Assembly (NCBI GenBank): GCA_020186115.1
Contig: WSYJ01000060.1
Span: 1,798,001-1,862,000, forward strand
Length of the DNA stretch: 64,000 nt
Direction of reading: 5' to 3'
Source of the DNA: Histomonas meleagridis
Taxonomy: Eukaryota; Parabasalia; Tritrichomonadida; Dientamoebidae
The position numbers were made by a program, and so were the translations under genes. Below the pieces are notes generated by a model, which was given only the letters and a program-made list of their open reading frames with translations, was not told the DNA's origin and did not search any database. Below are positions 5,909-64,000 of the stretch, one piece after another. Position 1 is the first letter of the stretch; every line of letters starts with the position of its first letter.

Positions 5909-8050
5909 TTAAAATTGAGTGCATACATTTTGAGGGGGAATTTTGGCTTTAATTAGGGGACAAATTTCACTATTTTTCTTCGATGCATAAGAAATTGCTG
6001 TTTCAAATAGATTAAACAATTTCGAAATGTTTTTTTGAAAGAAAATATCATGTAAATCAATATCAAACAAAATGTATTAACATTTTTAGCAGTTACATCA
6101 ATTCCATTTTGTTCAAGTAGTATTTTAATTATTTCTATATTACCATTTTGAACTGCAAATATAAGTGCTGTATTAAAAAAATTGAAAAATTTCCGAATAA
6201 TACTAAATATAAAATTATTATAATAAATTTTAAACAAAATATATAAATAGTTTTAACATTAACATCAATTCCTTCTTGTTCAAGAAGTAATTTAACTATT
6301 TCTATTGAACCTTTATAACATGCATGCATAAGCGCCGTCGAAAATGGAATAAATGAATATTTTGAAATATTTTAAAAAGCGAAATTATTAAAATAAATAT
6401 TAAACAAACTAAATAAATTGTAGTAGCATTAATATCAATTCCTTCATGTTCAAGAAGTAATTTTACTGTTTCTGTTTTACCTTTTCTAGTTGCCCACATA
6501 AGTGTTGTATAAAATAATTTAAATAATTTCCAAATATTATTTTGATATATTAAATGATAGATGTAAATATAAAATAAAAAATATAAATATCTTTATCATT
6601 AATATCAATACTTTCATGTTCAAGAAGTAATTTAACTATTTCTGTGTGACCTTCTGAAGATGCCCAAGTAAGTGCTGTTTTAAATAATCTAAATAATTTC
6701 CAAATATTATTTTAAAATAAGAAATAATTAAAATGAATTTTAAATAAAACAAATAAATATCTTTAGCATTATAATCAATTCCTTCTTGTTCAAGAAGTAA
6801 TTGAACTATTTCTGTATGACCTTTTTCAGATGCTGAAATAAGTGCTGTTCGAAATGATTCAAATAATTTCCAAATATTATTTTGAAACATAAAATTATTA
6901 AAATAAATAATAAATAAAACAAATAAATATTTTTTGCATTAACATCAATTCCTTTTTGTTCAAGAAGTAAATTAATTATTTCTGTACGACCATTTAAAGA
7001 TGCATAAATAAGTGCTGTATTAAATAATTTGAATAATTTCCAAATATTATTTTAAAATAAGAAATAATTAAAATGAATTTTAAATAAAACAAATAAATGT
7101 CTTTAGCATTAATATCAATTCCTTCTTGTTCAAGAAGTAATTTGGCTATTTCTGTATGACCTTTCCAAGATGCCCAAATAAGTGCTGTATTAAATAATTT
7201 AAATAATTTCCAAATATTATTTTGAAATATCAAATTATTAAAATAAAATTTAAATAAAACAAATAAATATTTTTAGCATTAATATCAATTCCTTCTTGTT
7301 CAAGAAGTAATTTGGCTATTTCTGTATAACCATTAATAGATGCTACAATAAGTGCTGTATTAAAAAGTTTGAACAAATTCCAGACATTATTTTTGAAATA
7401 CTAGAAAATGATAAAAATAACTTTAAAAAGTAAACAAATATTTTTAGCATTAATATCAATTTTTTTCTCTTGAATAAGGGATTTTGCAATTTCTGTAAAA
7501 CGCTTTTCACATGCAAAGATAAGTGCTGCTATAAATTTTCGGCACAAATACGAATAGTTTTATTCAAACAAAAAACGTATTAAATGAATATCAAGTTAAG
7601 AAAACAAATATTTTCTTTATAGATATTAATTCCTTCTTGCTGAATAAGAATTTTAAGAATTTCCATGTGATTATTTCGAGATGCATATAAAAGTGCTGTT
7701 AAAAATTTTTTGAATAATTTCCAATAGTTATTTTTATATATAAAATTAATGATATAAATATCGAATTATATGAATTGGCATTTTTAGCATTAAAATTAAT
7801 TCCGTCTAGTTCAAGAAAGAATTTAACAATTTCTATGTAACCATTTTCAGCAGCTAACATGAAGGCAGTTCTAAATAAGTAAAATAATTTCCAAATTTTA
7901 TATTAAAACAGTAAATTATCATAAAAAATACAAAATAATACAAAAAAAATAGTTTTAGCATTGAGATCAATTCCATTTTGTTCAACCAGAAACTTAATAA
8001 TTTCGAGATTTCTAATTCTAGTTGCTAATAAAATTGCTGTTTCACACAAT
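5909..8050 (-). repeat. ankyrin module array of locus A, 170-nt period with frame-breaking spacers
   Basis: Downstream of the locus A ORF, twelve ankyrin modules plus a divergent final one follow on the minus strand. The conserved Gly-Ile-Asp site recurs at + positions about 8140, 7970, 7799, 7629, 7459, 7288, 7118, 6948, 6778, 6608, 6438, 6268 and 6101, a period of 170 nt (range 167-171). Each module has about 29 codons of the form xTALIxASxxGHTEIVKLLL then EQEGIDINAK, with no internal stop although copies differ widely. Spacers of about 83 nt contain stops and shift the frame; many carry the block CAAAATAATATTTGGAAATT. The last module continues open to a TAA at 5909-5911. Either exons of one gene joined by a process not obvious here, or a decaying array. 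Confidence 0.75.
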
Positions 8051-8114
8051 TTCAAAAAATTCCAAATATTGATTTGAAACATTAAATTAATCATATCAAT
8101 TTCAAATAAAATAA

Positions 8115-9371
8115 TTAAATATTTTTACCATTTATGTCAATTCCTTTTTGTTTAACAACATATTCAACAAGCTCAATATTTTCTGATTGTGAAGCATAAG
8201 CTAATATATTTTTTGGAATTTGATTTTTTTGCGACAAATACTTAACAATATATATGTTTCCAATTTTTGCCACCCGATTAACTAAATAAGAATTATACTT
8301 CACTTTATCTTCCTCCAAAAAAGAAAGAATTTCATAATTCCCACATTCAACACAGAAACATCTAATTTCATTAATATTAAAAAGTATATTACCAGTTTGT
8401 TGATCATGTAAAGTTTCATTTTGATCATTATCAATTAATTTTTTAATATTATTTTCGTAGAAAAACTTAAAGATATCGTTTCGATGAAATTCAATTGCTG
8501 TTTCATATGCTTTATCAAATGATGAATGATTTTGTTCACATAAATGAATAATTTCTTCATTTCCACCTGCAACTGCATATTTACCTGTGTTTTCTAATTT
8601 TGCTCCATTCATAAGTAAATATTTAAAACATTTAATTGAAGAAAAAAATGCTGCATAATCAATTAGTGTGACATTTGGTTTGTTAATAAATGAACATCTT
8701 TCATAAAGTGATGGTTTAATTCTTTGATCATAATTAAAATTACTTTGTGATGATATTTCTTGAAGTTTTTCGATTTCATCTTTTCGAATTATTTTTGCAA
8801 TTTCACTTGGATTATGCCCTTCTTCAATATATTTCTTATGAAGTTCAAAATCATTCTTTGAAAGTGTAGATACAAAATGAGAACGATATGCTTTAGGGAG
8901 TTTATAACAAATATCTTTGTTTTCTTTATCCGTTCTGGTATTATTTGTATCGATTAATTTTTCTTCAATAAATTTCTCGATTATGTAATATGATTCTTCA
9001 GATTCAATGTTTGATAAATATTTGACAAAAACTTCAATTAATTTTGTATTAATTTTCATTTCTTTTTCTTTCGCTTGAATTGATTTTATATATTTTATAT
9101 ATATATAAATATCACTTGAATTAGGCTGTGAACAAAAACCATAATAAATTAAATGACTTATAATAAGGTTATACGAATAAGGATGTCTGTGATCAAATAA
9201 TTTCATAGTTTGATGCAATGAAAAATCAAAATTTTCTTCAGTTAATTCAACAATATTTTGCTCGAGTGTTATAAATAATTCTAAGTTGGTACTTAGATTG
9301 TCTGTTGCTTCAATACCACTTTTTATAGAATTTGATACTGAAATTTCAAGGCTATTATTTTTGGGCTTCAT
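8115..9371 (-). CDS. DUF3447/ankyrin family protein, locus A first ORF
   Basis: This 418-codon ORF begins at the first ATG (9371); an upstream TTG in frame is ignored because this is a eukaryote. It carries the trichomonad DUF3447-type layout: a helical N-terminal half, then degenerate ankyrin repeats with the family signatures SLYERCSFINKPNVTLIDYA, FKYLLMNGAKLENTGKYAVA and NEEIIHLCEQNHSS around residues 230-290. It ends in the first half of an ankyrin repeat (EYVVKQKGIDINGKNI) and stops just where the first spacer of the downstream module array begins, so the annotated stop may be artificial. Homologues in this window are loci B (21.8 kb), C (60.6 kb) and D (34 kb). Function of the family is unknown; ankyrin repeats usually bind proteins. 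Confidence 0.8.
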   Translation of the reverse strand: MKPKNNSLEISVSNSIKSGIEATDNLSTNLELFITLEQNIVELTEENFDFSLHQTMKLFDHRHPYSYNLIISHLIYYGFCSQPNSSDIYIYIKYIKSIQAKEKEMKINTKLIEVFVKYLSNIESEESYYIIEKFIEEKLIDTNNTRTDKENKDICYKLPKAYRSHFVSTLSKNDFELHKKYIEEGHNPSEIAKIIRKDEIEKLQEISSQSNFNYDQRIKPSLYERCSFINKPNVTLIDYAAFFSSIKCFKYLLMNGAKLENTGKYAVAGGNEEIIHLCEQNHSSFDKAYETAIEFHRNDIFKFFYENNIKKLIDNDQNETLHDQQTGNILFNINEIRCFCVECGNYEILSFLEEDKVKYNSYLVNRVAKIGNIYIVKYLSQKNQIPKNILAYASQSENIELVEYVVKQKGIDINGKNI

Positions 9372-9805
9372 CAAAATATACAAAAAGGTGTTTTCACTGC
9401 TATTTTATACTGTCAACTAATCTACTTTAGGTTAGTTAACTAACCTACTGACCATTTATAAATGAAGTTAAGGTACATTAGCCAATTGGTGTGTATCATC
9501 AGTACTTATTGTTATAATTATCACCAATTTTTTTAAATCGAAAATATTATTATTGGTGGAATTAATCCTAAATCGAAAAATATTAATGAATATAAAATTT
9601 ATTACAGTAATAATTATATTTATGATTTTAAAAAATCATAATTTATTTTATATTAAAAAAAAAAAAAAAAAAAAAATTAATAATTGTTATAATTACAATT
9701 AATCTAAAATGAAATATACAACAAAAGCTTTTAGGGTATAGTAATACCATTTTTAAAAAACGTACAATATGGAACTGTTATTCAATACTATTCGTTGAAA
9801 TTGAT
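9372..9805. other. intergenic, AT-rich
   Basis: No gene seen. It contains a run of more than 20 adenines near 9654-9676, likely prone to length error, and a direct repeat of GTTAGTTAACTAACCTAC type near 9430. Confidence 0.4.
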
Positions 9806-15108: not shown

Positions 15109-17220
15109 TTATATCCATTGATCATTTTCGTTATTGAGAGTATTATTAAATTCTTTGTCAATGAATTCAGTTTTTCCTTTTCCATCTGATGAAGAAAATT
15201 CATCGTTTTTATTAGAACTTTGAGATGAAATTTGTTTTTTACTTCGTCGAGTAATAAAAATTATAATTCCTATAATCAAAAGAAGAATTATAACTGATCC
15301 ACATGTAATACCAACTAAAACACTTTTTGAAATATTCGAATTTTGTTGTGATTCAGTTTGAATAATTGCATCAAAGAAATTATAATAATAAGAATAATAT
15401 GATGAATATCGATATATTGTGTAATCAAAAAATACAATTTCGGTGAAAATAAAAGTATAACTTGATAATATTAAAGTAAATGATAATGTATTTGATAAAA
15501 ATGAGTTGATAACAGTTAATGTTCGAGTAATGTATAAAGAATGAGTTAATGTTAGTGAATACAATCCTGAATTTACAAGAATTGTTTCTCTAAAAATATT
15601 TGATTTAGTAAATGAATCTGAATTAGAAAATGTATTCGACATAGTAAGTGTAAAAGAAATTGACATGCTGAAAGTATTTGACTTAGTAAAGGATTCTGAA
15701 TTAGAAAATGTATTCGACATAGTAAGTGTAAAAGAATTTGATATGCTGAAAGTATTCGATTTCGTAAATGATTTTGTTGATGTAAATGTAGTTGTTGGCC
15801 ATGGATATTGAAAGCATTCATCAATTGGCGTACCCAATGATACTTGAAGTGGGCCAAAATTTGTTCCATGGAATAACACAGATGTCATAACATATGTTGT
15901 ATTAACATTATCAAAAGCAAGACTATTTAAATTTGGACATTCATAACCTTTAAAATAAATACATTTGAGATTCTCACAGTTTTGAAATGCTCTGGATCCA
16001 ATTTCATTCACACTTTCTCCTATAATTAGTGTTTCTAATTCAGAGCAAAACTGGAATGCATAAGAATCAATGAATGTCACTTTATCTGGAATTGTAACAT
16101 TTTTTATTGATATACAGTTTTGAAATGCATTACTTTGAATAACATTTACATTTTCCCCCATTGCCACTGTTTTTAATTTGCTACAAGTATGAAAAGCATA
16201 AGACTTAATTGTTGTAACGGAATCAGGAATTATAATATTCATTATCGATGGATGACGATAGAATGAATAACCATAAATTATTGAAACCGTGTTTGGTATT
16301 TCAAATGTTTTGAATGAAATTCCTTCTGGATAAAAAACAATAATTGAATATTTATTGTTATATAAAATTCCGTTATTATCATTCATATAACAAGTATTTT
16401 GATCAGATACATTGATAAATTCAAGATGATTACATCCCATAAAAACATTATATCCAATTGATGTTACTGATTTTGGAATTGTGATATTTCTTAATGAAAT
16501 ACAATTTTGAAATGCATAATTTCCAATTTTTTGAACAAAAATTCCAAATAAAATAATTTCTAATTTTTTACATGATGAAAATGCATACTTCATAATTGAC
16601 GTTATTGTATGACCGATTTCAACAGAAACGAGAGACTCCCAGTTAGAGAAATCATAGGATTGTATATTCACTATTCCACCATAAATTATAACATGAGACG
16701 CATTTTGATAAACGTTTTTATTAGAATATTCGCTATAATTTGAAATCACAAGTGTTCCATTCGATAAATCAAAGACTTCAAAAGCTTGCTTAAAAAATAT
16801 TATAAAACAAAGAGAAATAATGTTGTTCTTAAAGTTCTCTTTGATACAAAATCTTTGAAGTATTAATTTAAAAAAATAGCTAATTACATTAAGGAAAAGC
16901 GCAGTAAAAACTAATATAATTAAATAGAATATAATTGTTCCAATAATTTTTGGTAGGATTTGAATGAAGTTGATAAAGAAATGAAAAAAAGTTGGATTTA
17001 TATATAACCAATGTTGTTTTACTATTTTTACAAGCGATAATTTTGATATAAAATTAGAGCTTTTTCCTTTATTTGGTTGTAAAAGTAAATCCAAATTTTT
17101 TAATGACTTCAAAATGATTATGTTCTTAGTGAAATTGCAATAGTTAAAAAAAAGTACTTTTTGGATATCCGCTAAACTTGAAGAAATCATATACAAAGAC
17201 ATATCTATTTTCACCACCAT
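15109..17220 (-). CDS. BspA-like leucine-rich-repeat surface protein with Ser/Thr stalk and membrane anchor
   Basis: Product of 703 residues from ATG 17220. Residues 1-150 are unusual for the family: hydrophobic helices, including a strong segment IIGTIIFYLIILVFTALF, before a second hydrophobic stretch (NNIISLCFIIFFKQAFE) that resembles the usual signal peptide. LRR_5 repeats follow (CISLRNITIPKSVTSIGYNV, IPDSVTTIKSYAFHTC, IPDKVTFIDSYAFQFC and others). Next is a Ser/Thr-rich stalk of 26-residue repeats (SFTKSNTF...SFTLTMSNTFSNS), a transmembrane helix (VGITCGSVIILLLIIGIIIF) and a 50-residue charged tail. Such proteins are displayed on trichomonads and suspected in adhesion. The N-terminal extension may be an upstream fusion, so the true start may be internal. 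Confidence 0.85.
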   Translation of the reverse strand: MVVKIDMSLYMISSSLADIQKVLFFNYCNFTKNIIILKSLKNLDLLLQPNKGKSSNFISKLSLVKIVKQHWLYINPTFFHFFINFIQILPKIIGTIIFYLIILVFTALFLNVISYFFKLILQRFCIKENFKNNIISLCFIIFFKQAFEVFDLSNGTLVISNYSEYSNKNVYQNASHVIIYGGIVNIQSYDFSNWESLVSVEIGHTITSIMKYAFSSCKKLEIILFGIFVQKIGNYAFQNCISLRNITIPKSVTSIGYNVFMGCNHLEFINVSDQNTCYMNDNNGILYNNKYSIIVFYPEGISFKTFEIPNTVSIIYGYSFYRHPSIMNIIIPDSVTTIKSYAFHTCSKLKTVAMGENVNVIQSNAFQNCISIKNVTIPDKVTFIDSYAFQFCSELETLIIGESVNEIGSRAFQNCENLKCIYFKGYECPNLNSLAFDNVNTTYVMTSVLFHGTNFGPLQVSLGTPIDECFQYPWPTTTFTSTKSFTKSNTFSISNSFTLTMSNTFSNSESFTKSNTFSMSISFTLTMSNTFSNSDSFTKSNIFRETILVNSGLYSLTLTHSLYITRTLTVINSFLSNTLSFTLILSSYTFIFTEIVFFDYTIYRYSSYYSYYYNFFDAIIQTESQQNSNISKSVLVGITCGSVIILLLIIGIIIFITRRSKKQISSQSSNKNDEFSSSDGKGKTEFIDKEFNNTLNNENDQWI
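15585..15775 (-). repeat. 78-bp in-frame tandem repeat in the BspA stalk
   Basis: Two near-identical 78-bp units (26 codons) plus partial flanking copies encode the Ser/Thr-rich stalk, with the marker AATTAGAAAATGTATTCGAC near 15619 and 15697. Length variation between strains is expected here. Confidence 0.7.
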
Positions 17221-21828: not shown

Positions 21829-22470
21829 ATGCAAGAATTATATTATATAATAGAGAAAATGATCATACAAAATTTGGTTGATAAAAATATTACTAAAAAT
21901 ATTAATTCAAAATATTTTGCTCATTATAAAACAGAAACAGAAAACAAAAAGAGAAATGATGGTCCATTTGAAAAATACTTTTTTGATAATTATGAAGAAC
22001 TATCAAAGAATGATTGGGAACTTCATAAGAAATTAATTATAGAAGGAGATAATCCAAATGAAATTGCGAAAATAATTCGAAAAGATGAAATAGAAAAACT
22101 TCAAGAATTATCATCACAAACAAATTTTGATTTTAATCAAACAATTGAACCATCACTTTATGAAAGGTATTCATTTATTAACAAACCAAATGTCACACTA
22201 ATTGATTATGCAGCATTTTTTTCTTCTGTTAAATGTTTTAAATATTTACTTATGAATGGAGCAAAATTAGAAAATACAGGTAAATATGCAGTTGCAGGTG
22301 GAAATGAAGAAATCATTCATTTAAGTGAGCAAAATCATTCATCTTTTCAAAATGCAGATGAAACAGCAATTAAGTTTCATCTAAATGATATCTTTAAATA
22401 TCTTTATGAAAACAAATTAGAGAAAATACAGCCATATTATTTGGTAAGTTTTTGTATTAAAAAAAGATAA
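21829..22470 (+). pseudogene. DUF3447/ankyrin family ORF, locus B, 5'-truncated and frameshifted
   Basis: The 213-codon ORF from ATG 21829 aligns with loci A and C from their residue 130 or so onward (SLYERYSFINKPNVTLIDYA, NGAKLENTGKYAVAGGNEEI), so about 110 N-terminal residues are absent. It breaks at a run of seven adenines (about 22459-22465): dropping into the next frame there restores the family sequence (DNYEIPKYFEEEGINVHADN, ASESGNIELVKYILDKEG) up to about 22690. A one-base homopolymer error in the assembly would also explain this. A module array follows immediately. Confidence 0.65.
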
Positions 22471-22740
22471 TTATGAAATTCCAAAATATTTTGAAGAAGA
22501 AGGAATTAATGTTCATGCTGATAATATAAATGAATCAGCAAGAAATGGAAATTTATATTTAATTAGATATTACCTTCAAAATAATCAAATTCCAATAGAC
22601 ATTTTGCTATTTGCTTCAGAATCAGGAAATATTGAACTTGTGAAATATATTTTAGATAAAGAAGGAATTAATGTTAATGCAAAAACTATTTATTTGAATA
22701 ATTTAGAATATGTTTTAATAATTTGTAATATGTTTTAATA
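22451..22740 (+). pseudogene. continuation of locus B in the second frame
   Basis: After the A7 frameshift the family sequence continues in the next frame: NGNLYLIRYYLQNNQIPIDI, then FASESGNIELVKYILDKEGI and NVNAKTIYLNNLEYVLII. It reaches a stop inside the first spacer. It corresponds to the last 80 codons of the locus A and C ORFs. Confidence 0.6.
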
Positions 22741-23915
22741 ATTTGGAACTGCACTTCATATAGCAGTTAAAAATAATAATATAGGAATAGTAAAATTACT
22801 ATTAGATAAAGGAATTGATGTTAATGCAAAAGATATTCATTTGAATAATTTGGAATATGTTTTAATAATTTTTTATATGTTTTAATAATTTTGGATACGT
22901 TTTAATAATTTGAAATATGTTTTAATAATTTGAAACAGCACTTCATATAGTAGTTAGAAATAATAATATAGAAATAGTAAAATTACTTTTAGATAAAGAA
23001 GGAATTGATGTTAATGAAAAAACTATTCATTTGAATAATTTTATATATGTTTTAATAATTTTTTATATGTTTTAATAATTTGAGACAGCATTTCATATAG
23101 CAGTTAGAAATAATAATATAGAAATAGTAAAATTACTTTTAGATAAAGAAGGAATTGATGTTAATGCAAAAAATATTCATATGAATAATTTTGGATACGT
23201 TTTAATAATTTGAAATATGTTTTAATAATTTGAAACAGCACTTCATATAGTAGTTAGAAATAATAATATAGAAATAGTAAAATTACTTTTAGATAAAGAA
23301 GGAATTGATGTTAATGAAAAAACTATTCATTTGAATAATTTTATATATGTTTTAATAATTTTTTATATGTTTTAATAATTTTTTATATGTTTTAATAATT
23401 TGAGACAGCATTTCATATAGCAGTTAGAAATAATAATATAGAAATAGTAAAATTACTTTTAGATAAAGAAGGAATTGATGTTAATGCAAAAAATATTCAT
23501 ATGAATAATTTATAATATGTTTTAATAATTTTATATATGTTTTAATAATTTGAAACAGCACTTCATATAGCAGTTAGAAATAATAATATAGAAATAGTAA
23601 AATTACTTTTAGATAAAGAAGGAATTGATGTTAATGCAAAATATATTCATTTGAATAATTTTGGATATTTTTTAATAATTTTATATATGTTTTAATAATT
23701 TGAAACAGCACTTCATATAGCAGTTAGAAATAATAATATAGAAATAGTAAAATTACTTTTAGATAAAGAAGGAATTGATGTTAATACAAAAGATATTCAT
23801 TTGAATAATTTGGAATAGGTTTTAATAATTTGGAATACGTTTTAACAATATTTAACTGAAATTCAAAATGCACAACAAAAAGGCTAAACAGAAATAGTAA
23901 ATTTATCGTAAAAAA
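22690..23915 (+). repeat. ankyrin module array of locus B with 20-bp spacer repeats
   Basis: Seven ankyrin modules (FETALHIAVRNNNIEIVKLL then LDKEGIDVNAK) are separated by spacers made of a 20-bp unit like AATTTKRWATRYGTTTTAAT. Unit numbers between modules are 2, 4, 2, 2, 3, 2 and 2, giving module spacings of 147, 190, 150, 150, 170, 150 and 150 nt. Each spacer carries in-frame stops (TTT TAA TAA just before the F-x-T-A-L start). Modules 2-3 are duplicated as modules 4-5. The last module is degenerate and has stops. Modules are nearly identical, so the expansion is recent. Confidence 0.8.
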
Positions 23916-33158: not shown

Positions 33159-33169
33159 ACATAAAATAT

Positions 33170-34686
33170 AATAAATATATGGTTTTGGAATTAATATAAA
33201 TTCCTTTTTGTTTGAGAAGTAATTTAACAATTTTGATTTGACCATAATTAAATGCATTCACAAGAGTGGTATCAAATGAATGAAATAATTTCCAAATATT
33301 ATTTTGGAATATTAAATTATTAAAATTAGTTTTAAATGAAATAAATAAATAAATATCTTTAGTATTAATATTTATTCCTTCTTGTTTAAGAAACAATTTT
33401 ACTATCTCTTTGTGATCTTAACGAGTTGCAATAATAAAAATGATGTTTGAAATGATTTAAATAATTTCCGAATAGTATTTTGGAATCTTAAATTTAGAAA
33501 TTGAATTTTAATTAAGAAAAATAAATATTTTTAGCTTTAGTATCATTTCCTTTTTGCTCAAGAAGCAATTTAACAATTTCTGTGTGTCCATGATAAGTTG
33601 ATTTCATAAGTGCTGTATAACACAAATTATAAAATTTCCAAATATTATTTTGAAATAAAAAATTGTTAAGATATATATTGAATAATACAAATTATACTCT
33701 TTTGCGTTAACATCAATTCTTCTCTGTCAAAAAGTAACTTAACTCATTCTCTATTTGTTTTTTCAGATGCTAAAATAAGTGCTGTTCAAAATAATTTAAA
33801 GAATTTTCAAATGTTGTTTTGTGATATATTAATAAAATAAATACCATAAATTAAAAATCAAATCCAAATAAAACATACAAACATCGACAGCATTGAAATC
33901 GAATCCTTTTTGTTCTAGAACATATATTACAAGTTCAATATTCATTGAATTAGTAGCCAAAACTAAAATATCTTTAGGTATAGATAAACATAATTCATTC
34001 AGAAAATACTTTTCAAGAAACACATTTCCAATTATTACAGATTTTTTAATGATAGATTCATTAATTTTCAATCCATTATCCTGCAAAAATAAAAATATTA
34101 TGAATTTTTCATAATTATAATGTAAAAATTTTTCTAAACTATTAATTTTACTAATTTTATTTTCATAAAGGTATTTAAAGATATCATTTCGATGAAATTT
34201 AATTGCTACCTCATATGACCCACGAAATGACGAATGATTTTGTTCGCATAAATGAATGATTTCAAGATTTCCATATTTACCTGTATTCTGATTATAAGAA
34301 TTATTGACGTTAGTGCATTTTTTAATGAAATGAATTTGTTTTTTATTAAATTATCAAGAAAATAATTGGATTCTTGAGTATATTTACTCAGAAGAAAACT
34401 TGTGAATACATATAAGATTTTTGACTTACTTTTGTTATTCTCTAATATTTCAATTTCTTTTATTAAATCTAAATTTGTTATATATAAATATCATTCATCA
34501 TTGAAATAGATAATCCGTATATCATCTGACTAATAATTAAATTAAATGTAAAAGGGAATTTTTCATCAAATTTGTTTATTATTAAATTTGCTGTTTGCTT
34601 AATATTTTCTTAAAAAAACCAAAAATTATTTGTTCCAATGAAAGAAGTTTTTCTAATTCGTTTTGATTTTTCCCTTTTTGTTCCAT
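33170..34686 (-). pseudogene. DUF3447/ankyrin family pseudogene, locus D
   Basis: Reading from an ATG at 34686 the N-terminus (LEKLLSLEQIIFGFF, later FTFNLIISQMIYGLSISM) matches locus C, but stops follow, and about 70 residues before GKYGNLEIIHLCEQNHSSF are deleted. The frame recovers at 34086-33829 (MQDNGLKINESIIKKSVIIG, TNSMNIELVIYVLEQKGFDF). Three or four degenerate ankyrin modules follow to 33170 with the same type of spacer (AATAATATTTGGAAATTATT) as loci A and C, some with frame damage. It is a decayed copy. Confidence 0.75.
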
Positions 34687-34976
34687 ATGATGGAATTGTG
34701 ATATGTATTTTGACTGGAAGTTATTAAATTTGAATTAGTACAAAAATTGATCTTAATTCTTATCATTTCGGAAAGGAAAAAAATTTATTTCTATTGAAAT
34801 ATATAAGTGTAACTTTGAAACAAATAAACAAATATAGTTTTAATCAAAATTGAATAAATGATTTGATTTCTTTAAGCTTAAAATATATGATTATATAGAT
34901 GGATATTCGAGAATCAATAATCATCATTTTTTTTAGGTATATTAATATATTTTATACAAAATTTTGTAAGCAGTTC
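34687..34976. other. AT-rich spacer upstream of tRNA
   Basis: No feature seen; holds whatever promoter serves the tRNA externally. Confidence 0.35.
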
Positions 34977-35048
34977 TCTCCCGTAGTGTAATGGTTAGCA
35001 CATGGGACTTTGAATCCCGGGACGGAGGTTCGATTCCTCCCGGGAGAA
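34977..35048 (+). tRNA. tRNA-Gln (anticodon TTG)
   Basis: A complete 72-nt cloverleaf without intron: acceptor TCTCCCG pairs with CGGGAGA, D arm GTGTAATGGTTAGCAC (box A region), anticodon stem TGGGA/TCCCG around loop CTTTGAA with anticodon TTG at 35010-35012, and T arm GGAGG-TTCGATT-CCTCC (box B). Discriminator base is A. The D arm and anticodon loop match eukaryotic tRNA-Gln. A T-rich stretch follows the gene and can end pol III transcription. Confidence 0.97.
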
Positions 35049-39287: not shown

Positions 39288-42200
39288 CTAATCAAACCAT
39301 GAAGGAACATATTCCCCGTTACTATATGATGTGATGTAATGATACCAATTAAATGAATCATCAATTGTTGCACCATCTGATTGTGGCGGACAAAAACTGA
39401 GTATACGATTCTCATATTCTGATGACTTACGTGAGATTGTTTCAAGATTTAAGTCATCTTTGTTCTCCTCAGCAATAAGAATTTCAAGACATGATTCAAC
39501 AGATTCAATGTTTTGAAGAAATGATTGTGCAATCGCACACATCTTAATGGTGATCTCTGCTTGATGATTTGGACCAAATAATATTCCAACACTTGGTGGA
39601 ATAGTTAACGGTTGATTTCGACAAACTTCATTTGTGAGCTCACCGATAGAAACAGGGAAAAGCGGTTTCTCTGAATCCGGTGACGATAGGACAACGTCTT
39701 CATCGGCCGGATCGGGAACGTTAAACAAAAACCGTAAAAAACTGTTAACCGCAAATGTAGAAACAAGAGATTTTCGAGCAAAGAAAAATTGTTTTCGTGT
39801 TCTATTTCTTGTATATAAGTGAAGTAAAGCATCTTCAGCTCCTTCGGTTTTACTATAAAGTTCTCCAATTGTTGATATTTTTGATCCTGCATTATATATA
39901 ATATATTTATTACCAATTTCATCAGAAATTGAACTTGGCATTTTTATGTCTCTTATTATTGTTGGATTGCTATCAAGAAGAACTTGGTTAAACAAATAGA
40001 GAGCAGCTGATAAATTTGATGCTTTGATTGAAGATTCAACTCTTTCAACAATAAATGAAGCATTGTGGATTTTATTTGTCATTGCTTCAAGCACAAAAGC
40101 GTTTTGAGACAATTTCTTTACATTACATGGATTAATAAAGTTCAATATTAAACCAGTTGGTGATCTTAATTGCATACATATTGGAAGTGCAGCATTAACC
40201 TCATTAATTTTTTGATTGTATTCATTTAACATTATATTGAAAGGAACATCAGAAGGAATAATTGAATCAATAAAAGCATCAATTTCAACATCTGGTACTT
40301 GCATAATTTTAGCATATACCTCTTCTATGTTTGTTTCTGCTTTCAAATGATTTGGTAATTCTTCGAAACTCTGTATAATTTGTGGTGTGATGCATTTTGA
40401 TTCTTTACAAAGGTGAATAAACCTTTGAAATTGTAATTGAAATTGGAACGATAGGAAATCAATTTCGAAAATGAAGTCGAAAAACTTTTCCAAATGTTGG
40501 ATTGCATTAAGATGCAAAATAACATCAGGGACACCAATTCTATACAGATTTACGTTTCTTAACATATTTTTCAGTGTGTAATAATATGGCTCATTTCCAA
40601 GATTATCAGGTAACTCTAACCAATTCTCATCAAGGATACCAAAAGCATTACTCAGCCAAAACTTAAGCATTTTCATTATACACTTAGTTACTCTTTGATT
40701 AAATTTTTGAACAATTACTCTGACCTCATCACTTTGACTTTTGCTTGCAAGTATTAATGTTGTTAATAATCTTGCTGCAGAGAAGAATCCTTGTGTATTA
40801 TTAATATATTGATTCTCAAGTAACTTAATATGCTGGCTAACGGTCCCCCAAACCATCTGCGGTGTCAAAACCTTTGAATTCTTCAGAATTGTGAAGGAGA
40901 AATTGGCAAATTTAATTAGAGCATCGATTTTGGCATCATGCTGCTGATTGCTTATGATGGAAACGACTTGTTGAATCGTTTGGAAGGAGGCAGCGACGTA
41001 GCCATGTGGTGAATAGCCTAATACTGTTCTAAATAATGAACTTAATGAAGGAGAAAAGAAAACAAGTTGTTGTGATTCATTTGGTAAAGCAAAGTCAAAT
41101 TTCCTTGTGTTCCCTGAGAGAATTCCTTTTAATAAATCGAGTGTATGGACAAAAACAGGATTTAGAACATGATATTTAAAATTACTTAAATTAATTTCTT
41201 TATGTGATTTTGTTCTTTCAGAATTACATCGTTCATTAATTAATAAAATGGCTGTTTGAGCCGCCGCAAATTTTTCTTTTTGGAATATTGATAATGTATC
41301 TTTGGTACGATGTAACATTGCATTTGCAAGTTCTGCATTTCGAATTTCATTTTTGATTAAATCTGGACTACCTTTCTTTAATAAAAGTTCTAAACCACGT
41401 TGGATATAAGGAATAAAATACATATCTGGTTTCTCACTTGAATTAAAAGCTTGTAAAAATTCGTCATTTTGTGTGTAAACCATTGAATTTGCAAGATAAT
41501 TCAAAATTCTATTCAATCTTGAAATAACCGGTGATTCAATATCACTATCGTCGAATCCAATTCCAATGGCCTCTTTGTAATTTGATAGGGCATATTGAAA
41601 AATTGAAATGGCGGTTTTTTCTTTAACGTCTGGTAATAAACTCGAAAATATTTGATCATTTAATTCGTTTGGTAATAAATACCAATCTTTTAATTCATTA
41701 ATTTCACTATTTTTATAAAACGACAAATTATTTGCACCCTTAATAATTTTTGATCTAAAAGTAAATGGAATTTTTATATCAAATTTATCTAATGCACTTA
41801 ACATTCCTGAAAGTAAATTCTTATTTTTACCATTAATATTATTAACTAAAAACTGAAATATAATTTGTAAGTTATCATTATTAATAATTCTTGAGAAGAA
41901 ATTTTCTGTAATAATTGAACCGTTTTTAATCAAAAAGTTTGACAACGGAATTAACGGTTCCCAATTTTCAATTGAATCCGTTAAAATCAAAATGATTAAT
42001 GGCAACAATTCATCATTCCACATTTCGATTGGTATGCAATTAATTAACAAAACGAATCTATCGAATTCATTTGGCGCGTTTAATTCTTTCCGTATTAGAT
42101 GAATTATATTAATTTTTTCTTTATATTCATATAAAATATTTGCATATTGTATTAAGGATTGTATTAAAAATTCTTTTTTATTTGGAATATCTAATTTATT

Positions 42201-45200
42201 TAATTCCAAAATGAATTTATGAACTAGTTTTGAATTTGCCATTGACAGTTTTGGTATTAAGTATTGAATTAAATTGACTTTAACCGAAATCTGAACTTTA
42301 TTTGAACCAATTATTTGAATTGAGCCGATCAATAATTGAGGGAACACGTGTTGAATTTTTTCAATGACGTATTGAATGTATTCCATTTGTTGTTCGAATT
42401 TTATGTATTTAATTGATGATATTAAATAAGTAATTAATGGATATGAATTATCATTAATACTAACTTTTTCCCAAATGTTAATTAAGAATTGTTTTTTCGA
42501 TAATTTACATTTCATTATTGATTTAATTATATAAATTAATTTTATAATTTGATTATTTGAATTATTGGAATTATTCGAATTGTTTTTATTATTTTTATCA
42601 TTCGGTACATCGGAATTACAAAGTTTATCAATGAAATTATTAATTTCATTATTAAATAATTGGAATAATTTATTATTATTAAAAATGGGCTTAATGAAAT
42701 AAGGTATAAAAGTATGAATTATTGAATTTGAAGGTTCATTATTAATTAATTGTAATGATTTTATTATAAAGTTATAATATTTCTCGATGAATGCAATTGA
42801 ACAATAATTTAATATAATGCATGATAAACTAAATGAAAATTTCGACTGAAGTTGTTCCAAAAATGTTTTTATTATGTTTTCGGTCAATATTTCACAATGA
42901 TTTTCTAAAAAATTAATGAAACAACGATCAATGAAATCATTAACTTGATATTTTAATGAAATTTTTATAACATCGAAAAATATCAAATGTAATTTATTTG
43001 ATTGATCCAAATTAATAATATTTTCTTTTAAGAAATTTCCGGCGAATTTTACAACAATATTAATTTTTTGCTGATTAATAAATTGTTGAATTGTTTTAAC
43101 AAACAATGAGAAGATATCAAATGGTAACAATTGGATAAAATGTGGAAACTTCGAAATGATATTTATAATAATTTTATAATTCGGGAAATTATCTTTTGTC
43201 GATGCGAGCTTTTCAATGAAGAATAATCGTATCGAGTCAATTGTATATGTTGAATAAGGTTGTTTTAAACTTGATATTATTTGATATGCGTATTTAAACA
43301 ATGAATTTTCATTATAAAAATTCAACGACAAAATTAGTTGAACAATTTTATCATGAATTTGATATGGTAAAAGTTCTTTCTTTAATAATGATATAGATAA
43401 TTTTAAGCCTTGAATATTAGTATAAGGTTCATTCGATTCTAAACATGAAGGAATTAACATTATAATGATACTAATTATTGAAGATTCCAAATTATACTTT
43501 TTAATGATTACATTTATACATTTTAATGATATTATGTTTAAGTTTTCATTATTATTATCTCTTAATTTTTGTAATAATAAATTCCAAATTTGTTTTAATA
43601 TCGTTTCATCAAGTGGATATAATATTTGTAACAAATATTTCAAGATGAAACTATATAAGTTATTATCAGTCAAAATACTTTCTAAATATTCAATATGAAA
43701 TTCTTTATTAAAACTTTTGAATATTGTCTTAAATTTTGTACTTAAATTAGTTTTAATGAAATTAGGGAAATTTAATATTTGTAGAAAATTGTTTATATTT
43801 GATATTGTCGGATATATTTTTATAGTATATAAATATAATGAAGTTGCTGCTTTTAATAAACCAAATTCTTGTTGCTCATGTGAAAAGTCATGATTTTTAA
43901 TATCTTTAAATATATTTAATAAGTCATCAAATTTCTTTCTAATTATTTCAAATATTTTCGAATCATTTGAAAACTTCTTTTTTTGTATTAATTTTTTAGT
44001 GATTTTAAATGTATCAATTGTTAAACAATTTAATTCGATTAAATGAAATTCTTCAATAAATATATCAACAAAAGGATTATAATCAAATAAATAATATAAT
44101 AATTTATACCCATAAAAATAACCAGGTTTAGAATTCTTAAGTATATAAATTATTGTTTCTTTTGCTATTGGCGTCAAAATTTTCCGAACTTTATTCGAAA
44201 AGTTCTGCAAAAACATTATATCATTATTACTAATTAATATATAAAAAGTTTGAAGTAATTTTTCAAAATATGTAAAATTACTATTTGGTATTGTGGAGAA
44301 AAGTTCTCTTTTTACTAAATTATAATTTAAATAATATACAGTTGAGAAATGATGTAAAATGTTCATAATTTGGAAATATAATTCGAAAATTTTTTCTTCT
44401 GTTTTAATGTTTTCGGCTAAATATATAATAAAATATTTAATTTCGGGATATATAAAAGTATTTGGTAAAAGTTTTGATAATGAATGAAAATAAGGGAATT
44501 TTCTAATTACATCATTACGTAAAATTTCATGAAAATTATTACTATTATTTTTCTTAATATGTGCAGTATCAGCTATTTCTTTTATTATATCTTTATTATT
44601 CTCATAATATTTGATGAATAACTTTAAACATTTCTCACTTTTATCTTTATAAACTGGAATACCTAAAGTAAATTGTATATATTTAAGAAACATATCAGGG
44701 AAATGTGATAAATCTCTTAACAAATTAAATTTTGTTTTTAGAACCGAATATATGAAATTTAATACAATTAAACATATCATGTTTTGATAAGTTTGTAATT
44801 GTTTTTGATCTTGAATTTTTTGTTTCGGTGATAAGAAATTATTAATACGTTCAATTAATTCTTGTGTAATATTAATTTCATTTTGTATTCCACATAAAAT
44901 ACAACAACTTAATGATGTAATATATGTAGAATCATCATTAAAGTTAGGAATCTCATTAAATGGTAATTTAACATTAAGTAATTTCATTACTTTTAAGATG
45001 TTAAAACGAATTTTCTTATTCCATGTTAATGTTAAATTATATAATTCGAAGTTTAATGTTTCTTTCTCATTTTGATCTAAATATTGTATTGTATTCTTAA
45101 ATAATTTATGGAATATTCGTTGAGATTGTTTATCGAAAATAAATGATTGATCTCCAAATGTTGGAATATGTATTAATCGTTGTAAATGTCGATATTTAAT

Positions 45201-60619: not shown

Positions 60620-61834
60620 ATGAATCAAAATCAAACAGCAACAACAAACCAGAAATCACAAAATGAATGGGAAACATTTGCAGAGCTCGAAAACATAATC
60701 TTTGGTTTGAATATAGATAATTTTGCTCAATCATCAAATTTTATTATCAGCAAATTTTGTAAAGAATATCCAATATCTTATGATATCATTATATGCCGAA
60801 TGATATATACATCTCTTCTGATTAATAGTAATAATTTTGATATATATTTGAGATTATTACAAGAAATTGAAAAATATGAAGAAAATAATAAAATCAACTC
60901 AAAAATAATAAATTTATTTTCTCAATTTCTACTTAAAAAAAACACACAAGAATCATTTCATTTACTTAATTACATGATTGAGCATAATTTACTTGAATCA
61001 AAAATCATACAAAATATAAGTGAACCATTTTTTGTTCATATTAATCAAGATAAACCAGATAAATATGAATATTCATTTGATCAAGAAAATATTGCTTATG
61101 AAGAACTATCAAAGAATGATTTTGCACTTCATAAGCAATTAATTGAAGAAGAACATAATCCGAATAAAATTGCAAAAATAATTCGAGATGATGAAATCGA
61201 AAAACTTCAAGAAATGTCATCACAAACAAATTTTGATTTTACTCAAACAATTCCAAAATCAATTTATGAAAGATGTTCATTTATTAATCAAAAAAATGTT
61301 ACATTAATTGATTATGCAGCATTTTTTGGATCAATTAAATGTTTTAAGTATTTACTTATGAATGGTGCAAATGTGGAATACACAGGTAAATATGCAGTTG
61401 CAGGCGGAAATGAAGAAATCATTCATTTATGTGAACAAAATCATTCATCATTTGAAGATGCATATGAAACAGCAATTATGTTTCATCGAAATGAAATTTT
61501 TAAATATATTTATGAAAATAAAATTGAAGATATTAACATTTTAAAAAAATTAGGAAAAAAATGCGTTTCATGTTTTAATTATGAAATTTTTACATATTTA
61601 GAAAAAGAAGGAATGAAAATTAATGAAAATATCATTAACGAAGCAGCAAAAATTGGAAATATTTTTCTTGTAAAATATTTCATTAAAAATAATCATCTTC
61701 CAGAAAATATTCTAGTTTTTGCTTCATTTTCAGGAAATATTGAACTTTTTACATACATTTTAAAGCAAGAAGGAATTGATTTTAATGCTAAAGATATTTA
61801 TTTGTATTATTTAGAATTTATTTTAATAATTTAA
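60620..61834 (+). CDS. DUF3447/ankyrin family protein, locus C first ORF
   Basis: The 404-codon ORF is the most complete family member here. The N-terminal helical half (ETFAELENIIFGLNIDNFAQ, YPISYDIIICRMIYTSLLIN) is followed by the degenerate ankyrin section SIYERCSFINQKNVTLIDYA, FKYLLMNGANVEYTGKYAVA and FSGNIELFTYILKQEGIDFN. As in locus A it ends right after AKDIYLYYLEF, at the stop in the first spacer of a module array, so the protein may be longer if the spacers are removed from RNA. Function unknown. Confidence 0.85.
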   Translation: MNQNQTATTNQKSQNEWETFAELENIIFGLNIDNFAQSSNFIISKFCKEYPISYDIIICRMIYTSLLINSNNFDIYLRLLQEIEKYEENNKINSKIINLFSQFLLKKNTQESFHLLNYMIEHNLLESKIIQNISEPFFVHINQDKPDKYEYSFDQENIAYEELSKNDFALHKQLIEEEHNPNKIAKIIRDDEIEKLQEMSSQTNFDFTQTIPKSIYERCSFINQKNVTLIDYAAFFGSIKCFKYLLMNGANVEYTGKYAVAGGNEEIIHLCEQNHSSFEDAYETAIMFHRNEIFKYIYENKIEDINILKKLGKKCVSCFNYEIFTYLEKEGMKINENIINEAAKIGNIFLVKYFIKNNHLPENILVFASFSGNIELFTYILKQEGIDFNAKDIYLYYLEFILII

Positions 61835-62941
61835 TATTACAAAATAATATTTGGAAATTATTTGAATTATTTAAAACAGCACTTATTTGTGCATCTGAAA
61901 ATGGTCATACAGAAATAGTTAAATTACTTCTTGAACAAGAAGGAATTGATATTAATGCTAAAGGTATTTATTTGTTTTATTTGATATTTATTTTAATAAT
62001 TTTATATTCCAAAATAATATTTGGAAATTATTTAAATTATTTAAAACAGCACTTATTTGTGCATCTGAAAATGGTCATACAGAAATCGTTCAATTACTTC
62101 TTGAACAAGAAGGAATTGATATTAATGCTAAAGATAAAATTTATTTTAATAATTTGATATTTCAAAATAATATTTGGAAATCATTTAAATTATTTCAAAC
62201 AGCACTTATATTAGCATCTAGATATGGTCATACAGAAATCGTTCAATTACTTCTTGAACAAGAAGGAATTGATATTAATGCTAAAAATATTTATTTGTTT
62301 TATTTAGAATTTATTTTAATAATTTTATATTCCAAAATAATATTTGGAAATTATTTATATTATTTTGGACAGCACTTATTTGTGCATCTGTAAAAGGTTA
62401 TACAGAAATCGTTCAATTACTTCTTGAACAAGAAGGAATTGATATTAATGCTAAAAATATTTATTTGTTTTATTTGATATTTATTTTAATAATTTTATAT
62501 TCCAAAATAATATTTGGAAATTATTTATATTATTTAATAATGCACTTATGATTGCATCTTCAAATAGTCATACAGAAATCGTTCAATTACTTCTTGAACA
62601 AGAAGGAATTGATATTAATGCTAAAAATATTTATTTGTATTATTTAGAATTTATTTTAATAATTTTATATTCCAAAATAATATTTGGAAATTATTTGAAT
62701 TATTTAAAACAGCACTTATTTGTGCATCTGAAAATGGTCATACAGAAATCGTTCAATTACTTCTTGAACAAGAAGGAATTGATATTAATGCTAAAGATAA
62801 AATTTATTTTAATAATTTGATATTTCAAAATAATATTTGGAAATTATTTAAATTTTTCGAAACAGCATATGCATCTGCAAATAGGAGTGGTCACGATGAA
62901 ATCGTTAAATTACTTTTAGAAAGGACATGCTCGACTAAATA
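61835..62941 (+). repeat. ankyrin module array of locus C, 170-nt period
   Basis: Seven modules, e.g. TALICASENGHTEIVKLLLE then QEGIDINAK. The first six carry the GGAATT marker at 61941, 62111, 62264, 62434, 62604 and 62774; with the copy ending the ORF at 61771 the spacings are 170, 170, 153, 170, 170, 170. The seventh module, about 62862-62941, has the divergent end EIVKLLLERTCSTK and no marker; its stop TAA lies in AAATAAAC, the usual gene-end context. Spacers carry CAAAATAATATTTGGAAATT. Two spacers (after 62111 and 62774) lost 17-18 nt and there the frame reads through without stop into the next module. Confidence 0.8.
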
Positions 62942-64000
62942 AACGGCAACTTTTTCCTAATTTGCTACATTATTTCCTAATTTTTTATAAGGACTGTCCT
63001 TAATAATCTTTTTTTTTCAAAAGTGGTTCGATATAATTGAAGTCAAACACTGTCACGATTGTTATTCGAATGATAGCATGTAATTTACTATTATTATATC
63101 TTGTATCATCAAAATTCTATAAATTTTATGAACATTATAATTAAAGTGATTAAAAAGAAAGAGGAATATTTAACATTGAATAGTATTTCAAAATATATTC
63201 TTTCAAAGTATGATGTGTATACAATAGACTCTGGAAAATCAACATTAAAAATTTTGTATAAATTACAAAATAAACTATCATTTAATCATTACTATCTCAT
63301 TTTATCTCTTGATCATTTTTTTGTATTTTTGTCTAATTTGTTTAAATTTTTAGTATGTATCTTATAATAGTTTTTGTGTTTTTAAATCTTGAGTTATATG
63401 CTATTACTTGGTTTAACTTTCTTGATTTGCACAACAACAATTCCAGTTTATGAAAAATATCCTTATGCTAAGATGTGTATTCTTTTTTCCCATCCAATGT
63501 TATTTTACTATTATTCTTTCAACAGATATGTGAATTTAAATATTACAAGTTTCCCCGAAGTAAATTAGTACTTGAATTCGTTTTTAAATATTTCAAAAGA
63601 AAGCAAAATGAGAAGATAATAAATAATTTTTATATGAAATTTTATATGAAAGCTATTTATAAAAAATTCAGTATAATTATAATATTATAATTAAAAATTC
63701 AAAATTTCGTTTAGAAGAATTTAAAAATTATAAAAGATATAAAAGCAAAAATCGTGATTTGTTAAGGTTTTGATTCATTTTTTGCCATCGGCCGATAATA
63801 AAAGATAATTTATTTCTCAATTAGTTCAATAATTTCATAAATTTCAATCAACTTTTTTTATCTTATTTTGTCATTTGCATCTCATTTATTCATTGTTTGG
63901 TTCTCTTTTATTCATTTCATAGGTTTTGACATTCTTTTTTTTTCCTCATTTTTTCACATCTTATTTGTTCATTGTTAAAACTCTTTTACTCTTTTTTTTA
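62942..64000. other. gene-free AT-rich end of the window
   Basis: No supported gene. Two short frames (63101-63367 and 63475-63690) are low-complexity, hydrophobic or lysine-rich and look like chance. The last 200 bases are T-rich. Confidence 0.45.

What the first reader, a model, noticed from the sequence alone, without database searches (positions are those of the whole stretch)
5909..8140. Single ankyrin repeats at a fixed 170-nt period, each interrupted by a frame-breaking spacer (locus A)
Twelve ankyrin modules plus a divergent last one follow one long ORF. The roughly 29-codon ankyrin part of each is stop-free although copies are clearly diverged and the AT-rich background would give a stop about every 11 codons. 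The spacers contain stops and vary by 1-3 nt, so they are not constrained in frame. The Thr of x-T-A-L is kept through ACA, ACT and ACG codons and the preceding residue varies, as expected for translated ankyrin. Cutting each spacer from after the codons for D-I-Y to just before F-x-T-A-L removes 68 nt and restores a 34-residue ankyrin spacing. But these borders are not GT...AG, and two modules lack any AG near the junction. So either an unusual removal of short repeats (RNA or DNA level), strongly non-canonical introns, or an array kept by recombination.
Basis: partly seen in the sequence, partly recalled or inferred. Interest (0 to 1): 0.9.

Follow-up and report, generated by a model that had tools for sequence, protein, structure and literature searches.

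The report
Ankyrin genes split into single codons
In the poultry parasite Histomonas meleagridis, ankyrin genes are chopped up by large numbers of 17-base inserts that leave single codons stranded between them, and the protein only makes sense if a still unknown process skips exactly 17 bases each time.

Summary
The genome is Histomonas meleagridis. The "68-nt spacer" is four 17-nt elements with three single codons between them...N-A-K-D|17|x2|17|x3|17|Gly|17|x5-T-A-L... Leaving out 4 x 17 nt gives the ankyrin loop D-x-x-G-x-T-A-L. Exact 17-nt tiling fits 182 of 203 junctions in 23 loci. The stranded triplets behave as codons: 0 stops in 414, GGN at the glycine slot in 125 of 146, exon-like G+C, 2.7 times the substitution rate of the 17-mers. 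Genome-wide, one pair pattern matches 1,496 places (reversed control 8); stop triplets 1, TAT/TGT 68. In other or divergent ankyrin genes, with element length free from 13 to 22 nt, 39 of 53 came out at 17; control 2 of 42. None of 584 elements is GT-AG; no hairpin was found. Removal from RNA is the best guess (about 0.55), not shown; no RNA or peptide data were available. How 17 nt are skipped is open.

The parts
8115..9383 (-). N-terminal exon of locus A (422 codons, Ank_2/DUF3447); its reading stops inside the first 17-nt element
5909..8120 (-). array of locus A: 13 junctions, 12 internal modules, 1 terminal exon
8044..8120 (-). junction 1: elements 8104-8120, 8084-8100, 8064-8080, 8044-8060; single codons GAA, AAT, GGA between
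7951..8043 (-). module 1 (31 codons, x5 to D1)
7873..7950 (-). junction 2, one base long for exact tiling (old length 69)
7780..7872 (-). module 2
7703..7779 (-). junction 3: four 17-nt elements, codons GAT, TAT, GGA
7610..7702 (-). module 3
7533..7609 (-). junction 4: four 17-nt elements, codons GAT, TTT, CGT
7440..7532 (-). module 4
7362..7439 (-). junction 5, one base long (old length 69)
7269..7361 (-). module 5
7192..7268 (-). junction 6: four elements, codons AAA, GAT, GGA
7099..7191 (-). module 6
7022..7098 (-). junction 7: four elements, codons AAA, CTT, GGA
6929..7021 (-). module 7
6852..6928 (-). junction 8: four elements, codons ATT, TAT, GGA
6759..6851 (-). module 8
6682..6758 (-). 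junction 9: four elements, codons AAA, CTT, GGA
6589..6681 (-). module 9
6512..6588 (-). junction 10: four elements, codons TAT, AAT, GGA
6419..6511 (-). module 10
6342..6418 (-). junction 11: four elements, codons AAT, CGC, AAT
6249..6341 (-). module 11
6175..6248 (-). junction 12, not exact (old length 65)
6082..6174 (-). module 12
6005..6081 (-). junction 13: four elements, codons GAT, TTT, CGA
5909..6004 (-). terminal exon: part of an ankyrin repeat, a C-terminal tail of its own, then a stop codon
   Evidence: sequence
21829..22687 (+). locus B, N-terminal part; the ORF (21829-22470) appears broken by a one-base shift before the array (by eye)
22688..23855 (+). locus B array, 20-nt-unit type: junctions of 3, 5, 3, 3, 4, 3, 3 elements, all exactly tiled, then a stretch that looks decayed
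60620..61795 (+). locus C, N-terminal exon to D1 (the ORF reads on to 61834 inside the elements)
61796..62942 (+). locus C array: 7 junctions, all exactly tiled (4,4,3,4,4,4,3 elements), terminal exon from 62859 to its stop at 62942
33160..34690 (-). locus D: decayed-looking copy of the same family, a natural contrast (by eye)

Best explanation
Ankyrin genes of Histomonas meleagridis are interrupted between codons by intervening elements of 17 nt (consensus RTTTNTTT..N..TTT). The elements sit around the codons of the ankyrin hairpin loop (D|x2|x3|G|x5), so that single codons are islands between elements. In the largest family seen, the interrupted repeat has been amplified in tandem (3-16 modules found per locus) behind a ~410-residue N-terminal exon, closed by a terminal exon with a stop. 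The mature message or peptide must leave out every 17-nt element and keep every island codon; this restores ordinary ankyrin repeats whose ligand-facing positions are hypervariable. Most likely the elements are cut from the RNA one at a time as ultra-short introns recognised as a whole by length and by their U-rich ends (as the tiny exact-length introns of Stentor are), but by signals other than GT-AG. SHOWN by sequence: tiling, codon nature of the islands, selection, presence in several ankyrin families. INFERRED: that the genes are expressed and that removal is at RNA level. UNKNOWN: the machinery.
For: Exact tiling in 182 of 203 junctions (two long ones judged by length only); 10 of 23 loci have every junction exact, e.g. 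L029 with 12 junctions, L040 with 11, locus C with 7. One rule covers the classes of spacer length: 68 = 4x17; 51 = 3x17 with one element absent and two codons adjacent; 8+20n = n+1 units of 17+3. Island codons in 138 distinct spacers: 0 of 414 stops; TAT 40: TAA 0 and TGG 15: TGA 0, where AAT 58: AAA 53; G+C 0.32 against 0.05-0.16 at phases that do not overlap the islands. Glycine slot GGA 109, GGT 9, GGG 6, GGC 1 of 146. Islands x2+x3 change 2.72 times as fast per site as the 17-mers in 45 disjoint pairs, Fisher p=2e-9, and the phase scan peaks at this phase. 20-nt-unit arrays: 123 islands, ten different codons, no stop, while 85 of the 123 upstream elements are one identical 17-mer. Genome-wide pair pattern 1,496 against 8 control; stop islands 1, TAT/TGT islands 68. 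Other or divergent ankyrin genes: 39 of 53 elements are 17 nt with length free (19 of 27 in L061-L069, 20 of 26 in L050/L051), against 2 of 42 in the shuffled control, beside uninterrupted junctions in the same genes. Conserved core and hypervariable surface codons. Terminal exons with their own stops. Read from protein only, relatives in 'ena' contigs fit the same first junction: P0005 with glycine at the same place, P0041 with a reading that one 17-mer plus a codon would give.
Against: No transcript or peptide was seen. None of 584 elements is GT...AG, none ends AG, none has CTAAC, while the genome has a U6 candidate with ACAGAGA (43.7 bits, gathering score 44) and canonical introns GTATGT...CTAACACACAG (5 of 8 pieces looked at, 71-113 nt), so the known spliceosome should not see them. 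No hairpin (54 representatives, mean z +0.14). 21 of 203 junctions are not exact, mostly one base off. Elements of 18 and 19 nt were also called (4 and 2 of 53). Among the 27 database proteins whose sequences I fetched, none with the family N-terminus goes on into joined modules (by eye). Average module dN/dS is near 1. Outside ankyrin genes no tandem pair reached the scan threshold in the window.
Confidence: 0.55

Rival explanations
1. Translational skipping: the 17-mers stay in the mRNA and the ribosome passes over each, as over the inserts of Magnusiomyces mitochondria or the gap of T4 gene 60.
For: Precedent for many short frame-breaking inserts skipped at translation, some without matched codons (PMC5009743, passages). 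Exact short length; insertion between codons; no splice signals.
Against: The codon before the element equals its last three bases in 4 of 584 cases, so no matched take-off and landing codon. No hairpin. Up to 23 elements in a row in one junction would need near-perfect efficiency.
Confidence: 0.15
2. Silent or decaying cassettes: modules and spacers are an untranslated reservoir kept alike by gene conversion; the protein ends at the first junction.
For: Main ORFs stop in or shortly after the first junction, and so do the close database relatives fetched. Average dN/dS of modules near 1. Spacers diverge at about the synonymous rate. Locus D looks decayed.
Against: Island codons avoid stops and carry synonymous glycine codons; stop islands 1 against 68 genome-wide. 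Core codons conserved, surface codons hypervariable. Terminal exons with stops. Same elements inside otherwise ordinary ankyrin genes.
Confidence: 0.12
3. DNA-level excision: the 17-mers are removed from a working copy of the genome, like ciliate internal eliminated sequences.
For: Exact, codon-neutral inserts; precise absence of single elements, e.g. locus C junctions 3 and 7.
Against: The assembly holds the elements; no second nucleus is known in parabasalids (recalled).
Confidence: 0.05
4. One ordinary or non-canonical intron of about 68-77 nt per repeat, with the reader's cut between D-I-Y and F.
For: Right total length; canonical introns of 71 nt exist in this genome.
Against: It would discard three codons that behave as codons, cannot explain the shorter junctions of other genes, and the pieces have no AG end or CTAAC.
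Confidence: 0.03

Closest known systems
Tiny introns of Stentor coeruleus (15-16 nt)
   Same: Exact, ultra-short, AU-rich, many per genome; branch adenosine at a fixed place (PMC9505925, listing and two passages)
   Different: Stentor introns are GU...AG; here 0 of 584 are GT-AG, length is 17, and single-codon islands lie between them
Spliceosomal introns of Trichomonas (type A 56-196 nt, type B 23-28 nt)
   Same: Same phylum; a very short, uniform class exists (PMC12316389, passages)
   Different: Those have a conserved 5' motif and a branch motif fused with the 3' motif, and one or rarely two per gene; these lack the motifs and come by the dozen
Nonconventional introns of euglenids
   Same: Variable non-canonical borders, unknown removal (PMC4770533, start of abstract in listing)
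   Different: Euglenid ones rely on RNA structure bringing the ends together; here no structure, fixed 17 nt
Bypassed inserts of Magnusiomyces mitochondria; T4 gene 60
   Same: Frame-breaking short inserts, many copies, that leave the protein intact (PMC5009743, passages)
   Different: Nuclear-genome contigs, 17 nt, no matched codons, no hairpin, tandem with single codons between
Internal eliminated sequences of ciliates (recalled)
   Same: Short precise inserts inside genes
   Different: No evidence of a second genome; ends are not TA-bounded (recalled defining feature)
Ankyrin repeat families of trichomonads (DUF3447/Ank_2)
   Same: The encoded repeats and N-terminal domain
   Different: Tritrichomonas foetus relatives P0025 (663 aa) and P0042 (578 aa) are on record as uninterrupted proteins

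Membership tests
Spliceosomal introns (U2 type) | GT at the start and AG at the end | tested here: not met
   60 of 584 start GT, 0 end AG
Spliceosomal introns of this genome | GTATGT ... CTAACACACAG | tested here: not met
   0 of 584 hold CTAAC; canonical ones seen elsewhere, 5 of 8 pieces
Spliceosomal introns (U2 type) | Absent from mature mRNA | not testable with these tools
   no RNA data held
Stentor-type tiny introns | Exact uniform length near 15-16 nt, AU-rich | tested here: met
   17 nt in 39 of 53 free-length calls, tiling 182 of 203; 1-2 nt longer than in Stentor
Stentor-type tiny introns | Fixed branch adenosine | tested here: inconclusive
   A at position 11 in 0.62 and at 14 in 0.70 of weighted elements
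Stentor-type tiny introns | GU...AG ends | tested here: not met
   0 of 584
Euglenid nonconventional introns | RNA structure joining the ends | tested here: not met
   mean z +0.14 for 54 representative spacers, 2 of 54 below -1.5
[quoted passage not shown]
   4 of 584; not strict in Magnusiomyces either
Bypassed inserts (Magnusiomyces, T4 gene 60) | Insert retained in mRNA but absent from protein | not testable with these tools
   no RNA or peptide data
Internal eliminated sequences | Absent from a somatic genome copy | not tested
   no reads held
Ankyrin repeats | D-x-x-G-x-T-A/P-L-x-x-A ... consensus | tested here: met
   Pfam Ank_2 etc. for the N-terminal exons; loop seen junction by junction under the tiling

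The most novel reading that the evidence does not exclude
A nuclear genome carries thousands of 17-nt non-GT-AG intervening elements that isolate single codons, removed by a machinery not yet known. In the arrays each element-plus-codon (20 nt) is a unit that can be gained, lost and swapped, so the organism edits the ligand-binding loop of its ankyrin repertoire one codon at a time.
Probability: 0.5. Interest if true: 0.98.

Novelty: categorically new. Interest (0 to 1): 0.94.

Why it matters
Single-codon coding islands between uniform 17-nt inserts, dozens per gene and more than a thousand junctions per genome, fit no described gene structure that the searches made here listed. If the inserts leave at RNA level, it is an intron class at the lower limit of known size and without the two splice-site dinucleotides. 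If the ribosome skips them, it is massive bypassing in nuclear genes. Either is directly testable with existing or simple new RNA data; aligners that call gaps under about 20 nt deletions would hide it (general knowledge). The elements also hide a large ankyrin family: the published annotation reports at most one intron per gene (PMC8529796, passage).

Tried and rejected
Rejected: (1) single 68-nt intron with GT-AG or canonical Trichomonas signals. (2) Hairpin-based removal: a hairpin seen by eye failed the shuffle test. (3) -1 ribosomal frameshifting at T TTA AAA at the spacer end: fits 68 nt but not 48, 88 or longer junctions, and x5 is AAA, as the heptamer needs, in only 34 of 146. (4) Spacer cut at I...F (77 nt) by base composition: superseded when the island codons were recognised. 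(5) Helical-phase reading of the 8+20n lengths: superseded by 17+3. (6) A first collinear array comparison gave module dN/dS 0.99 with 62 stop-holding codon pairs, against 0.27 for the N-terminal exons; it ran past terminal stops and through misaligned units. Redone with 216 reciprocal best pairs: dN/dS 0.20, 1.02, 0.89, 1.06, 1.11 by rising divergence, no stops, but these modules were selected as stop-free. In one search spacers had 0.023 indels per substitution against 0.081 and 0.067 in the flanks, consistent with constrained length; the same alignment flaws apply. (7) Joined proteins in the database: none seen; only the 8,000 candidates sharing most words were scored (2 of 3 searches used). 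(8) Tandem elements outside ankyrin genes: in the window none above the threshold outside loci A-D (three isolated weaker pairs); two places off the main array in L033 and L041 proved to be further members of the ankyrin family. No gene-by-gene frame test of other genes was made.

In one search five junctions counted as '17-only' are 69-nt cases that the parser fitted with runs of extra codons; the stricter counts them as not exact. In one search, 42 anchors were tried and 34 parsed (one search gives the count); several non-17 lengths there look like parser slips. The control shuffled 80 nt three times at each junction that had elements (24 junctions, 72 shuffles); 14 parsed above the cut.
Full report
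WHAT THE WINDOW IS. The window is G000:C40:1798001-1862000 of a 43.28 Mb, 121-contig assembly. Contig lengths 3,384,422 and 673,467 equal the largest contig and N50 given for the virulent Histomonas meleagridis strain (PMC8529796, table passage; the paper counts 187 contigs and 43.41 Mb, so the copy held here is not identical), and database proteins named as H. meleagridis lie in contigs of 3,384,422 and 984,133 bases, both present here. The published annotation reports 573 introns and at most one per gene.

THE OBSERVATION. ORF 8115-9383 (-), with Ank_2 and DUF3447 matches, is followed by 12 single-ankyrin modules and a terminal one at a 170-nt period. The same plan follows each of 20 further loci fetched and loci B and C of the window: 226 modules in 23 loci. 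Genome searches list 179 DNA matches to a 401-nt piece, and 117 and 99 matches to two family N-termini, all lower bounds. The N-terminal ORFs stop in or shortly after the first junction. Relatives P0001-P0004, P0011, P0013 and P0040 from unnamed 'ena' contigs end at the same place.

FROM SPACER TO 17-NT ELEMENTS. Spacer lengths were too regular for junk: 147 of 182 exactly 68, with 48, 51, 65, 67, 69, 71, 88 among the rest, and 8+20n in 20 of 21 in the 20-nt-unit arrays. Per-codon rates showed the I, Y and F codons at the borders with almost no synonymous change, while D and x5 changed like codons. A divergent gene (L051) had shorter spacers. All of this is explained by one parse: D1|17|x2|17|x3|17|G4|17|x5-T6-A7-L8. 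The unit is 20 nt, 17 plus a codon; leaving out the 17-mers restores frame whatever the number of units, because each unit adds one residue. Exact tiling with stop-free islands holds in 182 of 203 junctions (the two longest judged by length only); 10 of 23 loci are exact throughout. The remaining 21 are mostly one base off.

THE ISLANDS ARE CODONS. In 138 distinct 68-nt spacers the three island triplets hold no stop in 414; AAA:AAT is 53:58 and GAA:GAT 14:52, but TAA:TAT 0:40 and TGA:TGG 0:15; their G+C is 0.32 against 0.05-0.16 elsewhere (0.19-0.31 at offsets 9, 10 and 12, which overlap the islands). Some other phases in the T-rich 17-mers also have few or no stops (offset -6: 0 of 438; 7: 1; -5: 2; 12: 3), so stop absence alone is not the argument; it is stop absence together with composition, variability and the glycine. 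The third island is GGN in 125 of 146, by all four codons. Islands x2 and x3 changed 49 times in 270 sites against 204 in 3,060 for the 17-mers in 45 disjoint close pairs. In 20-nt-unit arrays 123 islands use ten codons and no stop, although 85 of the 123 upstream elements are one identical 17-mer. Genome-wide, RTTTATTTN5ATTT-NNN-RTTTATTT has 1,496 matches against 8 for the reversed pattern; with the island fixed to TAA/TGA there is 1, to TAT/TGT 68. Many of these copies are related by duplication, so the counts are not independent. The pattern caught 29 of 203 sample junctions, so the true number of junctions is probably several times larger.

NOT ONLY THIS FAMILY. A T. foetus ankyrin protein (P0025) gave 68 matches, of which 22 end at query residues 451-458 and 13 at 483-490 (some are members of the same family). 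Nine pieces beside such matches were fetched (L061-L069). With the divergent loci L050 and L051, 42 anchors gave 34 parsed junctions. With element length free between 13 and 22, 39 of 53 elements are 17 nt (19 of 27 in L061-L069), 4 are 18, 2 are 19, the rest scattered; L067 gave no parsed junction. The same procedure on shuffled upstream sequence gives 2 of 42 at 17. Interrupted and uninterrupted junctions stand side by side in one gene, for example L061 RD-K-F|17|G|17|KTPLHFA and RN-N-E-G-WTPLHFA. The slot after glycine is used most (24 of 34). Starts are ATT 22 and GTT 21, ends TTT 37, of 53. In the window no tandem pair above threshold lay outside loci A-D (three isolated weaker pairs). 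Nineteen window ORFs, the family's own included, were scanned with Pfam without a sign of interruption in the others, but no frame test was made.

SELECTION. In 1,847 close pairs the ankyrin core positions hardly change their residue (for example L at module positions 4 and 18-20, N28), while x5 and the positions that correspond to ankyrin 10, 13 and 14 have pN 0.53, 0.62, 0.60 and 0.31 against pS 0.33, 0.29, 0.55 and 0.14. That these are ligand-facing positions is recalled, not from a call. Pairs are not independent. Arrays close with terminal exons that have tails and stops of their own in many loci.

HOW ARE THE ELEMENTS PASSED OVER? Not by canonical splicing: 0 of 584 elements end AG, 0 hold CTAAC, whereas canonical introns of this genome read GTATGT...CTAACACACAG (5 of 8 pieces looked at had GTATGT 71-113 nt upstream; 8 motif matches against 3 control; with a gap of at most 35 nt the full pattern has none). 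A U6 candidate with ACAGAGA is present, at 43.7 bits just under the family cut-off. Not by structure. Not by a matched-codon hop (4 of 584). What is left is a length- and end-defined removal. Exact tiny introns with a fixed branch point exist in Stentor, so I rank RNA removal first, translational skipping second. No transcript or peptide could be examined. Searches of the protein database gave no joined version; proteins over about 707 and 931 residues were out of range of those two searches.

RELATIVES. P0005, 45% identical to the locus C ORF, reads through its first junction with a spacer of the same length and a glycine at the same place; P0041 reads on after D-D as one 17-mer plus a codon would. 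Both are judged from protein only, since their DNA was not held.

NOVELTY. Searches listed nothing on such elements; most subscription papers and preprints are not in that library. I call the arrangement categorically new as a gene structure, and leave open whether the machinery is.

Noticed in passing
window 33,160-34,690 (-): A decayed-looking copy of the same ankyrin family (broken N-terminal part, damaged modules): a natural pseudogene contrast for rate tests.
   Followed up: partly
window 21,829-23,855 (+): Locus B: N-terminal ORF apparently broken by a one-base shift near 22,450; junctions still exactly tiled.
   Followed up: partly
L037 (G000:C9:162400-170500): Junctions with 18 and 23 tandem element-plus-codon units, which would insert long variable loops into single ankyrin repeats.
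   Followed up: partly
L052 1501-1608 (G000:C36:377228-377335): U6 snRNA candidate with ACAGAGA, 43.7 bits, just under the Rfam cut-off.
   Followed up: yes
L053-L060: Canonical-looking introns (5 of 8 pieces), some with an inner inverted repeat (seen by eye, not tested).
   Followed up: no
G000:C5:182605-183888 and L051: The NCBI protein named caskin 1,2 (P0016, 100% match) is a read-through into the first junction; about nine further ankyrin exons lie downstream.
   Followed up: partly
L033 3250-3750 (-) and L041 3350-3800 (-): Further members of the ankyrin family on the opposite strand, close to the loci fetched.
   Followed up: partly
L049 (G000:C82:5000-7700): Beyond the array a tandem repeat reading TECVLILSQRFFAAHQITSTQRRF in one frame.
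   Followed up: no
window 39,288-48,044 (-): A 2,918-codon open frame, not identified.
   Followed up: no
window 15,593-15,771 (-): A 78-nt tandem repeat inside a BspA-type leucine-rich ORF.
   Followed up: no
window 34,977-35,048 (+): A tRNA gene, the only Rfam match in the window at gathering scores.
   Followed up: no
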